Of a stretch of 29,854 bases of DNA, positions 4,134-17,623 are shown in pieces; within the stretch, counting starts at the first letter, position 1; each line of letters opens with the position of its first letter. The stretch comes from a virus: positions 1 to 29,854 of the IMG/VR virus record IMGVR_UViG_3300009786_001143; one strand, 5' to 3'. The notes under the pieces are model-generated. The model was not told the DNA's origin and made no database searches. It was given only the letters and a program-made list of their open reading frames with translations. Made by a program: the position numbers and the translations under genes.

Positions 4134-4343
4134 ATGGATCTAGTATTTTTGTTGATAATGATATGTCTTGCGAATGATGAGGGCGTAACAAAATGTGAGA
4201 AGAATCTTATAGATCAGTTTGAGAATGTAGAACGATGTGTTCAAACAAAGGAAGTTATTCAATGGGAGTTAGCACCACATCTTAAATCAAATATAGGGGT
4301 AACCCTGTGGTGTAGCGTAAATAGAAATGAAATTATAAAATGA
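4134..4343 (+). CDS. Small exported two-cysteine protein, third of three
   Basis: A protein of 69 residues and the shortest of the trio. A very hydrophobic start (MDLVFLLIMICLA) is followed by a segment with Cys in TKCEKN, then QFENVERCVQTKEV and a C-terminal LWCSVN. The last two cysteines correspond in position to the pair in the two upstream proteins. The signal is short and contains its own Cys, so it could be a membrane anchor or lipoprotein-like, though there is no clear lipobox. No good ribosome site is visible. Translation may depend on the upstream gene that ends 5 bases before. Confidence 0.5.
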   Translation: MDLVFLLIMICLANDEGVTKCEKNLIDQFENVERCVQTKEVIQWELAPHLKSNIGVTLWCSVNRNEIIK

Positions 4344-4360
4344 AATTGGCTCAGGAAACG

Positions 4361-4957
4361 ATGAAAGTTCTTTGTATAGACACCGATATTAATATTAATA
4401 AATTATCCAAACAAGTTCTTACAAAGGAAGTAGAGATTATAAAAAAATATTCTCCATTAGGTGGTAATGGAGAATTTACAGATGGCCAGACTGGATTAGG
4501 AGAAAATTCTTTAACATCTAGATTTTTCCATTTTAATGTGTTAAACTGGTTGGGAACAAAATCATTAAGAAAATGGATTCGTAAAGGATATGAGGCCTAC
4601 ACTGGAATAAAAGGTACAACATTGTATGTACAGTGTTGGGCAAATGTAATGAGAAGGGGAGAACAAATACAATCCCATAAACATTGTAGTTATAATGATA
4701 GAATAATTACATCAGACCGACATCTGTGTGGACATTTAAATGTTCAGGTAGATGGTTTAACATCTACATATTATGGAGGTAATCCTATTTTAAATGAGAA
4801 AAAGACTATGGTTTTTTTCCCAAACAATGTTCTTCATTGGACGGATAGATGTGATAATGATAAGGAAAGGATTACAATAGCCTTTGATGTTTACAGTAAA
4901 GAATATTTTAAGTATGATATATTTGACTATGCTAAAAACCATTGGGTGAGAATATGA
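4361..4957 (+). CDS. 2-oxoglutarate/Fe(II) oxygenase-like protein
   Basis: About 198 residues from the preferred ATG at 4361, which has an AGGA ribosome site 4 bases upstream. An ATG at 4340 overlaps the previous stop (ATGA) and would add seven residues. The C-terminal half reads as the phage 2OG-Fe(II) oxygenase family: a CWANVMRRGEQIQSHKH segment with candidate iron ligands H106 and H108, a STYYGGN turn, then MVFFPNNVLHW with candidate ligand H159, and ERITIAFDV whose R170 would bind 2-oxoglutarate. Such enzymes hydroxylate proteins, small molecules or bases, and the substrate here is unknown. It overlaps the MoaD-like gene by 4 bases. A role in oxidising a methylated base is possible but it does not look like TET/JBP. 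Confidence 0.65.
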   Translation: MKVLCIDTDININKLSKQVLTKEVEIIKKYSPLGGNGEFTDGQTGLGENSLTSRFFHFNVLNWLGTKSLRKWIRKGYEAYTGIKGTTLYVQCWANVMRRGEQIQSHKHCSYNDRIITSDRHLCGHLNVQVDGLTSTYYGGNPILNEKKTMVFFPNNVLHWTDRCDNDKERITIAFDVYSKEYFKYDIFDYAKNHWVRI

Positions 4958-5187
4958 AAATAAAATTAACAGGTGATTTTGCATTAGGTGTAGGCAAAAA
5001 AGAAATAGATATAAGTGGATTTACTACTATAAAAGGATTGCTCAATGTATTAGATAATACTCATCCCAATCATGGTTGGGGTGATTGTAATATAGCAATT
5101 AATGGAACTATGTATTCTAATTCATGGTTGCAACCAATTACAGAAGGTGATGAAGTAGTTATCATGCCGCCTATTGAGGGAGGATAA
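4954..5187 (+). CDS. MoaD/ThiS-like ubiquitin-fold protein with C-terminal Gly-Gly
   Basis: A protein of 77 residues starting at the ATG at 4954, which overlaps the upstream stop (ATGA) and has GGGTGAG upstream. The size, the beta-grasp pattern (MKIKLTGDF, an IKGLLNVL helix, NIAINGTM, then ITEGDEVVIMPPIEGG) and the terminal Gly-Gly are classic for sulfur carriers of the MoaD/ThiS family. In that family the terminal Gly is adenylated and thiocarboxylated by an E1-like enzyme to donate sulfur, or conjugated to proteins. No E1-like gene is in this window, so a host enzyme or a distant phage gene would be needed. The terminal glycine codons also form the ribosome site of the next gene. Confidence 0.75.
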   Translation: MKIKLTGDFALGVGKKEIDISGFTTIKGLLNVLDNTHPNHGWGDCNIAINGTMYSNSWLQPITEGDEVVIMPPIEGG

Positions 5188-5188
5188 G

Positions 5189-5557
5189 GTGAAAACATTA
5201 ATTATTGATATAGATGGAACTTTAACGAAATATATGAGTGAGGGACATAGGGCGGTGATAGATAATGCTCATGAGTTGTTACCTGGTGTATTTCACAGAA
5301 TGAAGAAGTGGGAGGCACAAGGACACAACATCATTCTTATTACTGGTCGTAGAGAGTCCGTAAGAGAAAGAACAGAATCAGAACTCCGCAGATTAGGCAT
5401 ACCCTTTGATATGTTACTTATGGGTATGGCAGACGAAGGCCGTATCCTGATAAACGATATAGGATCCATAGGAGACAAAGCCCATTCAGTAAACTTAGAA
5501 AGAGATGAGGGATGGAATTATGTTGATTGGGAAGAGGTGGGTCTTGACAACCTATAG
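5189..5557 (+). CDS. HAD-superfamily phosphatase
   Basis: A protein of 122 residues starting at GTG 5189, chosen because GGGAGGA lies 5-6 bases upstream. A TTG at 5174 would lie inside the preceding gene. HAD motifs are clear: DIDGT at residues 7-11 (nucleophile D7, acid/base D9), ITGRRES for the motif II threonine, and a late LINDIG Asp for magnesium binding. There is no large cap domain. The length and spacing resemble small phage HADs and the phosphatase half of polynucleotide kinase. The substrate could be a nucleotide, a sugar phosphate or a DNA/RNA 3' phosphate. The promoter for the next gene begins in its last codons. Confidence 0.75.
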   Translation: MKTLIIDIDGTLTKYMSEGHRAVIDNAHELLPGVFHRMKKWEAQGHNIILITGRRESVRERTESELRRLGIPFDMLLMGMADEGRILINDIGSIGDKAHSVNLERDEGWNYVDWEEVGLDNL

Positions 5558-13184: not shown

Positions 13185-14028
13185 GTTCGTAACGAATAAA
13201 GAAATTCCTAATTTGTTATTGTCTGGTGGACCTGGCGTTGGTAAGACGACGGTTGCTAGGGCTTTGTGTGAGCAACTGGAAACAGATTACCTCATCATCA
13301 ATGGTAGTGAAGAATCTGGCATAGATGTTCTTAGAAGTAAAATAAAAGGTTTTGCTTCTACTGTATCATTGACTGGTGGAACTAAAGTTGTGATATTAGA
13401 TGAAGCAGATTACCTCAATCCTCAAAGTACGCAACCCGCTCTCCGTGGGTTCATTGAGGAATTTCATAACAACTGTAGATTTATATTTACAGCTAACTAT
13501 AAAAATAGAATTATCGAACCATTACATTCTCGATGTTCAGTTATTGAATTCAAGATAAATGGCAGTCGTGATAAATTAGCTCACGAATTGCTTAATCGTT
13601 GTGGCAATATACTGAATGAGGAAAATATAAAATACGATAACAGGGTTGTAGCAGAACTTATTATGAAACACTTTCCGGATAACCGGCGAGTGTTGAATGA
13701 ACTGCAGCGGTATAGTGCTGCGGGTGAAATAGACTCCGGAATTCTTGTCAATCTTTCAGATATTAATTTGAAAGAATTGACCCTCCACCTCAAGAATAAG
13801 GAGTTTACCAAGGTGCGTAAATGGGTAGTCGATAATATCGACAATGACCCTACGAAAATCTTTCGTAAAATTTACGACAACTTGTATTATACTATGGAAC
13901 CGAGCACTATACCGTCTGCTATTATTTTAATTGGTCAGTATCAATATAAATCAGCATTTGTAGCTGACCAAGAGATTAATTTGTTGGCGTGTTTAACAGA
14001 AATTATGAGCCAATGTAGATTCAAATGA
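13096..14028 (+). CDS. 44: Clamp loader large subunit gp44
   Basis: A protein of 310 residues (T4 gp44 has 319) of the AAA+ clamp-loader family. Visible: the N-terminal WVEKYRPRKIQDCILP, Walker A GGPGVGKTT at about 45-53, Walker B VVILDEADYL, and the arginine-finger SRC motif (HSRCSVIEF), then the lid and collar domains. Four gp44 and one gp62 open the gp45 ring and load it at primer ends. It has a GAGGTG ribosome site inside the zinc-ribbon gene. In T4 the next gene is 62. Here gp62 is 7.2 kb away at 21250, after a block of cargo genes. Confidence 0.93.
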   Translation: MKQILWVEKYRPRKIQDCILPPAIKKSFSEFVTNKEIPNLLLSGGPGVGKTTVARALCEQLETDYLIINGSEESGIDVLRSKIKGFASTVSLTGGTKVVILDEADYLNPQSTQPALRGFIEEFHNNCRFIFTANYKNRIIEPLHSRCSVIEFKINGSRDKLAHELLNRCGNILNEENIKYDNRVVAELIMKHFPDNRRVLNELQRYSAAGEIDSGILVNLSDINLKELTLHLKNKEFTKVRKWVVDNIDNDPTKIFRKIYDNLYYTMEPSTIPSAIILIGQYQYKSAFVADQEINLLACLTEIMSQCRFK

Positions 14029-15266
14029 ATGATGCTTGGAGTGATAGACTAAAGCAAGAATACGGTGAGTGGTTGGAGAAATACAATCACAACGTAGAGG
14101 CTCTTAGTGATGAGGAGATGAAAAATCTCCTAGAGGAAGAATTATTGTTTACTTCCGATATGTCCGTAGAAGAATATACCCTTTGGCAAAAATGGCATGA
14201 GATACAACGTAAATATCCAACTAAGGAAGTATCAACTCTTTTTGGTAAAGAAAAGGTATTGATTGAAGGTACCCACATTATAGACAAAGCTAAATCTATG
14301 ATGTGGAAACCAAAATCTATTAATGATTATTTGAACTTGGAACCAGAGATGGTTCTTACAAATTATAATGATTGGTTAAAGGAACAGTTTACAACAGTAA
14401 GAACCTTTTGTCACACACAACGAAACAATAATAACATAGGTAGAAATATGTTTTACCTTGTTATGGATAAACTTACAGGTAAGTATCTTGGTGTGATTGT
14501 TATTACAGGAGATTTTCTTGACTTAGCACCCAGAGATAATTTTATAGGTTGGACCAGAGAACAGAGAAACGCAGGTAGATTGAAACATACTTGTATAGGC
14601 TCAACAATTTTACCAACCCAACCCCTAGGGTATAATTATGTAGGCGGTAAACTATTAGCATTATTGTGTTTGTCTGATGAAGTGCAGAACGAATGGAAAA
14701 GAAGATATGGTCAGACGTTGGTGGGTGTGACTACAACATCTTTATATGGTTCGTTTTCACAATACAATAATTTAAAATATTGGAATAAAAGAGGAAAGTC
14801 ATCCGGTTCTATTGTATTTGAGCCAACAAGAGACACCTTATATAAAGTTAGAGATTGGGTCCATAAACGTGACCCTGTTAAATATTGGGAATGGTATTTT
14901 GCTTTAGACGATAGAGGTAATAAACTTAAACGTGACCACAAATTTAGAATGTTGAATTGGGTTTATTCTCAGTTGAAGATAAAAGATACAAAGACGATGC
15001 ACCAACGTGGCATTTATTTTTCCCATCTTTATGAAAACTCATCAGAGTTTTTAAGAGAGGAAATATTAGAGACTAAATTAAGAAAACGATTTGACACCTC
15101 TACCGAACATTTGGTTAACCTTTGGAAAGATAAATATGCGAGTAAAAGAATTAAGTCTCTTATAGAAAGTAATAGAGTAAAAAAGGAAACTCTATTTTAT
15201 GATGAATTGATTTACCTTAGCTGGGAAGATACTAAGAAAAAATATTTACCGGATGTGGGTCGGTGA
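14025..15266 (+). CDS. DruA/DUF4338-like protein
   Basis: A protein of 413 residues. Residues about 140-265 follow the DUF4338 pattern: YLVMDKLTGKYLGVIVI, then APRDNFIGWTREQRNAGRL, a hydrophobic ILPTQPLGYNYVGGKLLALL stretch, the EWKRRYGQTL segment and a final LKYWNKRGKSSGS. DUF4338 is found in DruA of the Druantia anti-phage system. The 120-residue N-terminus is charged and helical, and the C-terminal 130 residues are basic and unassigned. A DruA-like core in a phage could be counter-defence, inter-phage competition or DNA/nucleotide modification. It overlaps gp44 by 4 bases and the following glycosyltransferase by 4 bases, and it starts the cargo block. Confidence 0.55.
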   Translation: MNDAWSDRLKQEYGEWLEKYNHNVEALSDEEMKNLLEEELLFTSDMSVEEYTLWQKWHEIQRKYPTKEVSTLFGKEKVLIEGTHIIDKAKSMMWKPKSINDYLNLEPEMVLTNYNDWLKEQFTTVRTFCHTQRNNNNIGRNMFYLVMDKLTGKYLGVIVITGDFLDLAPRDNFIGWTREQRNAGRLKHTCIGSTILPTQPLGYNYVGGKLLALLCLSDEVQNEWKRRYGQTLVGVTTTSLYGSFSQYNNLKYWNKRGKSSGSIVFEPTRDTLYKVRDWVHKRDPVKYWEWYFALDDRGNKLKRDHKFRMLNWVYSQLKIKDTKTMHQRGIYFSHLYENSSEFLREEILETKLRKRFDTSTEHLVNLWKDKYASKRIKSLIESNRVKKETLFYDELIYLSWEDTKKKYLPDVGR

Positions 15267-17086: not shown

Positions 17087-17623
17087 ATGAAACAGAAAGG
17101 ATTTACATTAATAGAGTTGATGATTGTGGTAGCAGTGATTGGAATCTTAGCAACAGTAGCAATTCCTTCTTATAGCAATTATACAGTTAAGGCTAAAATT
17201 TCAGAAGCATTTTCAGTTATAGGTCCTTGGAAGATGGAGATGATGGAATATTTCTTTATGAATGGAGAATTTCCTAAAAAAGGATGTAATTCTTGTATCG
17301 GTATGGGATCAGATGGTGATTGTGGAGCATCCTTACGAGCTGGTAAAAGTTGTTCCTTTGGAAAAAGTGGAATAGGAACCTATGTTCAAAATATTCATAT
17401 TGGAGGTCGAGTTGAATTGAAGGAAGACCAAGATTTGATTATAACTTTCAATGACAATGCTGGTGCTGCTGCTGGTAAGCGGATAGCTTTACGAGCAGTT
17501 AATAGCGGCGGTGTAATTGCATGGGTATGTTCCTCTATGGCCTCTATGGATCCTTCTGCATTAGATTTAAAATACTTACCTTCAAGTTGTAATAAATATA
17601 TATATTGCCCGGCCTGCGGATGA
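17087..17623 (+). CDS. Type IV pilin (PilA/PilE-like prepilin)
   Basis: A protein of 178 residues. The N-terminus MKQKG followed by [20 protein letters not shown] and [16 protein letters not shown] is a canonical class III signal. A short basic leader ends in Gly5, cleavage falls before Phe6 (to be N-methylated), Glu10 is in mature position 5, and a hydrophobic helix packs the fibre core. The globular part has several cysteines, including a Cys-rich NSCIG...DCG...SC loop, and the C-terminus ends in KYIYCPACG. Host PilD and assembly machinery would be needed. A GAGAGG ribosome site is present. It is flanked by glycosyltransferases. The presence of a major-pilin-like gene in a T4-like phage is unusual. 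Confidence 0.9.

What the first reader, a model, noticed from the sequence alone, without database searches (positions are those of the whole stretch)
4954..5187. MoaD/ThiS-like sulfur carrier or ubiquitin-like protein in a phage
The protein ends in Gly-Gly after a beta-grasp pattern, the form needed for activation by an E1-like enzyme. It lies between an oxygenase-like protein and a phosphatase. It might capture the host sulfur-transfer route, modify nucleotides, or be attached to proteins as a ubiquitin-like tag that blocks host processes. No E1 is nearby.
Basis: partly seen in the sequence, partly recalled or inferred. Interest (0 to 1): 0.65.

Follow-up and report, generated by a model that had tools for sequence, protein, structure and literature searches.

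The report
Phage-borne MoaD-type sulfur-carrier protein
A marine T4-like phage carries a small gene for a MoaD-type (ubiquitin-fold) protein with an intact Gly-Gly tail but no activating enzyme of its own in the known sequence, so it probably plugs into the bacterium's own sulfur-transfer machinery.

Summary
Window 4954-5187 (+) encodes a 77-residue protein of the ThiS/MoaD family (PF02597, E 9e-10, well over the curated cut-off). It ends exactly in Gly-Gly, and its AlphaFold model matches MoaD, SAMP1 and CysO structures best. Fifteen relatives occur in IMG/VR and none was found in 50,697 phage records. All lie in phage contigs, all end ...VIMPPIEGG-stop, and the tail varies only synonymously. 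The window is a 29.9-kb fragment of a T4-like marine phage. The gene sits in three different loci in different relatives and is missing from the same site in close relatives: it is accessory cargo without a fixed partner. No E1 (ThiF), MoaE or JAB gene was found in any of the 16 fragmentary records. I therefore read it as a MoaD-type sulfur carrier activated by the host's MoeB/ThiF-type E1. The thiocarboxylate then most plausibly feeds a host acceptor such as molybdopterin synthase; that step is inferred. A ubiquitin-like tag or an E1 decoy is not excluded but has no positive support. A CysO-like role with the PLP enzyme found next to some relatives is not favoured, because that enzyme is just as common without the gene.

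The parts
4954..5187 (+). MoaD/ThiS-family protein, 77 aa, C-terminal ...VIMPPIEGG then TAA
   Evidence: PF02597 E 9.1e-10; AlphaFold2 and PDB fold matches to MoaD/SAMP1/CysO; 15 homologues
5161..5184 (+). codons of the C-terminal tail IMPPIEGG, the part that MoaD inserts into its E1
   Evidence: amino acids invariant, synonymous changes in 7 of the last 9 codons
4944..4950 (+). GGGTGAG, Shine-Dalgarno-like stretch just before the ATG, inside the end of the upstream gene
   Evidence: read from the sequence; not conserved before the start in the relatives
4340..4957 (+). 2OG-Fe(II) oxygenase-like gene overlapping the MoaD start by 4 bases (ATGA); not next to MoaD in relatives L002-L004 and L006
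   Evidence: PF13759 E 1e-6, phrog_81 E 1.4e-14; absence at the site in relatives
5189..5557 (+). HAD-type phosphatase, backbone gene of these phages, also present in relatives without MoaD
   Evidence: PF25109 / phrog_415; empty site in L029, L030, L031, L035

Best explanation
The gene encodes a MoaD-type sulfur carrier. Shown: it has the family's sequence, the predicted fold and a strictly conserved free Gly-Gly end, it is under purifying selection, and it is an accessory gene that moves between loci in T4-like marine phages with no fixed neighbour. Inferred: the host's E1 (MoeB/ThiF type) adenylates its C-terminal glycine, a host sulfurtransferase converts it to a thiocarboxylate, and it donates sulfur to a host acceptor. 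The most likely acceptor is host molybdopterin synthase (MoaE), so that molybdenum-cofactor supply is maintained or raised during infection. The confidence given is for an E1-activated sulfur carrier that uses a host E1; the specific acceptor (MoaE) is nearer 0.3.
For: Family: PF02597 above cut-off in the window protein and in L005 and L006; the nearest NCBIfam models are MoaD models (L006 48.7 bits against 49.5 for moaD_arch). Fold: MoaD chains lead both structure lists (VIA-align Z 10.0 for 6jbz_B). Tail: IMPPIEGG invariant at amino-acid level only, so it is not merely the ribosome-binding site of the next gene, which differs between loci. A pattern for this tail finds exactly these 15 contigs in IMG/VR. 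No fixed partner: three loci, empty site in close relatives, and a context-A gene (L006) nested among context-B sequences at 100/100 support. No ThiF, MoaE or JAB in the 16 records, while ThiF and MoaE ring in 14 and 11 of 14 control genomes, so a host supply is plausible. The best hit among plasmids is a MoaD/ThiS gene beside a molybdopterin-binding xanthine-dehydrogenase-family subunit (about 31% identity, weak).
Against: The records are fragments of 4 to 42 kb, so a phage E1 elsewhere in the genome is not excluded. The acidic residue before Gly-Gly (PPIEGG) differs from the PPVSGG or PPVTGG of the MoaD proteins compared here, so fit to a standard MoeB is untested. The protein falls below the MoaD equivalog cut-offs. 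The host is unknown, so it is not known to make molybdenum cofactor.
Confidence: 0.5

Rival explanations
1. CysO-like carrier: the protein carries sulfide for a phage PLP enzyme (cysteine-synthase superfamily), making cysteine or another thio product, as CysO-CysM do in mycobacteria.
For: A PALP-family gene (PF00291) lies directly downstream of the MoaD gene in L005, L007 and L008 and nearby in L015 (the L005 match is below Pfam's cut-off). CysO structures are among the fold matches. MoaD + JAB + cysteine synthase operons are known in bacteria (PMC1779556).
Against: The PALP genes belong to more than one PHROG and follow the methyltransferase about as often without MoaD (4 of 6 against 5 of 11, Fisher p 0.62; L115 lacks MoaD). 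A relative in Erythrobacter phage ZS04 lies within a gene annotated as DNA methyltransferase. None in the window. No JAB found.
Confidence: 0.12
2. Ubiquitin-like modifier or E1 decoy: the Gly-Gly end is activated by a host E1 and joined to proteins, or it ties up an E1 used in host defence (CBASS Cap2 or Bil type).
For: Same fold and tail as SAMP1 and Urm1, which do both jobs. Phage accessory genes often serve takeover. E1-dependent conjugation is used in anti-phage defence (PMC10097602, listed).
Against: No E1 or JAB found in the records. The closest matches are sulfur carriers. No direct evidence.
Confidence: 0.13
3. Sulfur donor to a phage modification enzyme: it feeds the 342-aa N4/N6-methyltransferase-like protein, or another nucleic-acid modifier, located just upstream in most relatives.
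For: Overlap of stop and start codons with that gene in L005, L007, L009, L011 and L015.
Against: The methyltransferase family occurs in about 98 contigs and has MoaD in its neighbourhood in under ten of the loci examined. The window, L002-L004, L006 and L010 have MoaD without it next door.
Confidence: 0.08

Closest known systems
MoaD, small subunit of molybdopterin synthase
   Same: fold, length class, ...PP-x-x-GG end, best structural matches (2q5w, 1fm0, 6jbz)
   Different: no MoaE, MoeB or other cofactor gene nearby; Glu before Gly-Gly; below the MoaD equivalog cut-offs; only 29% identical to E. coli MoaD
SAMP1 / archaeal MoaD-like proteins
   Same: the moaD_arch and SAMP1 models match along the full length in L005 and L006
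   Different: shorter loop between helix 1 and the next strand (77 or 83 aa against 88 to 91 model positions); conjugation not shown
CysO of Mycobacterium tuberculosis
   Same: fold, Gly-Gly end, PLP enzyme next door in some relatives
   Different: no JAB hydrolase found, PLP enzyme not consistently linked
Lambda and T1 tail assembly protein I (TAPI)
   Same: a ThiS/MoaD-related domain in a phage (PMC1779556)
   Different: TAPI is a tail-assembly gene with an extra C-terminal domain and a JAB/NlpC partner; here the gene is stand-alone and accessory, with an exact C-terminal Gly-Gly

Membership tests
ThiS/MoaD family (PF02597) | profile match above the curated cut-off | tested here: met
   39.4 bits against 22.5; L005 45.8, L006 39.7
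ThiS/MoaD family (PF02597) | beta-grasp fold | tested here: met
   AlphaFold2 model and PDB matches; predicted, not solved
ThiS/MoaD family (PF02597) | free C-terminal Gly-Gly | tested here: met
   stop codon directly after Gly-Gly in the window and all 15 relatives
MoaD proper (molybdopterin synthase small subunit) | NCBIfam equivalog cut-off (TIGR01682) | tested here: not met
   28.6 bits against 66.15; a MoaD-like protein, not filed as MoaD proper
MoaD proper (molybdopterin synthase small subunit) | MoaE or other cofactor genes in the same replicon | tested here: inconclusive
   no MoaE in 16 fragmentary records; the host may supply it
MoaD proper (molybdopterin synthase small subunit) | adenylation by MoeB and thiocarboxylate formation | not testable with these tools
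   needs biochemistry
CysO-type carrier | operon with cysteine synthase and JAB hydrolase | tested here: not met
   PALP in only some relatives and not enriched with MoaD; no JAB found
Ubiquitin-like conjugation system | E1, E2 or JAB partner encoded nearby | tested here: inconclusive
   no ThiF or JAB in 16 records, but these are fragments and E2 was not searched separately
T4-like marine phage (Kyanoviridae-like) | T4-type replication genes, nearest isolate in that group | tested here: met
   gp55, UvsW and gp46/47-like genes; DNA polymerase 55.5% identical to Methylophilales phage Melnitz

The most novel reading that the evidence does not exclude
A phage-encoded ubiquitin-like protein that hijacks a host E1 to tag host proteins, or to jam E1-based anti-phage defence, during infection.
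Probability: 0.1. Interest if true: 0.85.

Novelty: new member of a known kind. Interest (0 to 1): 0.42.

Why it matters
A stand-alone MoaD-type carrier in lytic T4-like phages would mean that some marine phages tap the host's E1-dependent sulfur relay (molybdenum cofactor, or another thio product). It also gives a small, easily tested handle on whether phages use ubiquitin-fold proteins against their hosts. Sulfur-relay genes including moaD have been listed in a viral metagenome survey (PMC12092443), but I found no analysed example in T4-like phages.

Tried and rejected
Partner by neighbourhood: rejected, because none is constant. Phage E1, MoaE or JAB: none in 16 records. Isolate phages with the gene: none; Melnitz and S-SSM4 lack the family. 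Stenotrophomonas phage TS-12 seemed a precedent (MoaD with MoeB), but the stretch is a complete moaA-moeB-moeA-moaE-moaD operon with a transporter and a Crp-type regulator, which looks like bacterial chromosome in the record; not used. Close cellular source: a genome-contig scan with the MoaD alignment found none. Host by the phage pilin: a second scan found none. T4 late promoter TATAAATA: one match, fewer than chance, none near the gene. Drawing relatives' genomes was not possible for a virus record. The idea that the conserved Gly-Gly codons are only the ribosome-binding site of the next gene was rejected: the codons vary synonymously and the next gene differs between loci.

Full report
What is there. 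The ORF at 4954-5187 on the + strand starts with ATG, encodes 77 residues and ends ...VIMPPIEGG followed by TAA. Pfam's ThiS family matches at E 9.1e-10, 39.4 bits against a curated 22.5, to the last position of the profile. NCBIfam ranks MoaD models first but below their cut-offs. An AlphaFold2 model on 15 natural homologues has mean pLDDT 78.5 and the beta-grasp order of elements. Foldseek's leading matches are MoaD, SAMP1 and CysO; VIA-align puts mycobacterial and E. coli molybdopterin-synthase small subunits near the top, Z 10.0 to 8.1, above ubiquitin at about 7.

Where it lies. The window is a 29,854-base virus record with T4-type genes: UvsW, late sigma factor gp55, gp46/47-like genes, clamp loader, DNA polymerase, plus peptide deformylase and Hsp20. 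Its DNA polymerase is closest, 55.5%, to Methylophilales phage Melnitz, Kyanoviridae. Melnitz and Synechococcus phage S-SSM4 have no ThiS-family match in their whole records.

Relatives. Protein and alignment searches give 15 IMG/VR contigs, and a DNA pattern for the tail IMPP[I/V/M]EGG-stop gives the same 15 and no others. No record among 50,697 phages has a comparable gene. Thirty positions are invariant in the 15-row alignment, including the whole tail. Median dN/dS over pairs is 0.26, and 7 of the last 9 codons vary while their amino acids do not. The Gly-Gly end is therefore selected as protein, not as the ribosome-binding site of the next gene.

Context. In the window, L002-L004 and L006 the gene sits between small ORFs and a HAD phosphatase. 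The 2OG oxygenase is at this spot in the window only. Close relatives L029, L030, L031 and L035 have the HAD gene directly after the preceding backbone gene, without MoaD: an empty site. In most of the others (for example L005, L007, L009, L011, L013, L015) it follows a clamp loader and a 342-aa N4/N6-methyltransferase-like gene, in several with overlapping stop and start codons. In L010 it lies between two A-type-carrier-like genes, one of them confirmed as PF01521. L006, in the first context, groups with the second-context sequences at 100/100 support, so the gene has moved between loci. The methyltransferase family occurs in 98 contigs, mostly without MoaD. The PLP enzyme that follows MoaD in some relatives is not significantly more common with MoaD than without (Fisher p 0.62; small numbers).

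Partners. No ThiF, MoaE or Prok-JAB gene was found in any of the 16 records. These are fragments, so absence is weak evidence; but ThiF rings in 14 of 14 control genomes, so a host E1 is likely to be available. The best plasmid hit is a MoaD/ThiS gene next to a molybdopterin-binding xanthine-dehydrogenase-family subunit, at about 31% identity.

Interpretation. Shown: a MoaD-like protein with an intact, selected Gly-Gly tail, mobile within T4-like marine phages and without a fixed partner. Inferred: a gene without a fixed phage partner works through host proteins. MoaD-family tails are activated by E1 enzymes of the MoeB/ThiF type (established knowledge), so activation by a host E1 and sulfur transfer to a host acceptor, most likely MoaE, is the simplest reading. 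Not shown: activation, sulfur loading, acceptor, host, time of expression. The Glu before Gly-Gly is unlike the Ser or Thr of the MoaD proteins compared here and may mark a different E1 or acceptor.

Known background. ThiS/MoaD-related domains in phages are known from lambda/T1 tail assembly protein I, which is a different gene in a different setting, and bacterial operons join MoaD-like proteins with cysteine synthase and JAB (PMC1779556). moaD is named once in a list of viral sulfur-relay genes (PMC12092443). I rate it a new member of a known family in an unusual place.

Noticed in passing
window 17087-17623: A type IV pilin gene (PF00114 E 2e-11, N_methyl motif) among glycosyltransferase and sugar-metabolism genes of a T4-like phage.
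   Followed up: partly
window 14025-15266: A DruA-family protein (Druantia, PF14236 E 4e-20) directly after the clamp loader, at the place where relatives carry the methyltransferase-MoaD pair.
   Followed up: no
L005 2177-4236; L115; L148; L182: A methyltransferase-like gene and a PALP-family PLP enzyme recur near each other in many marine T4-like phages in both orders; in Erythrobacter phage ZS04 the PALP match lies inside a gene annotated as DNA methyltransferase. A possible DNA-modification pair.
   Followed up: partly
L002 8697-9515: A 4Fe-4S protein with weak QueG/reductive-dehalogenase similarity inserted between gp47-like and gp46-like genes, absent from the window.
   Followed up: no
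L247 8479-8775, L207 539-853, L300 12245-12541: A different phage protein family of about 100 aa that also ends in a MoaD-like tail, KMILVPPVAGG.
   Followed up: no
L313 (MW302330.1 24500-34000): The Stenotrophomonas phage TS-12 record holds a complete molybdenum-cofactor operon with a Crp-type regulator; it looks like bacterial chromosome in a phage record.
   Followed up: partly
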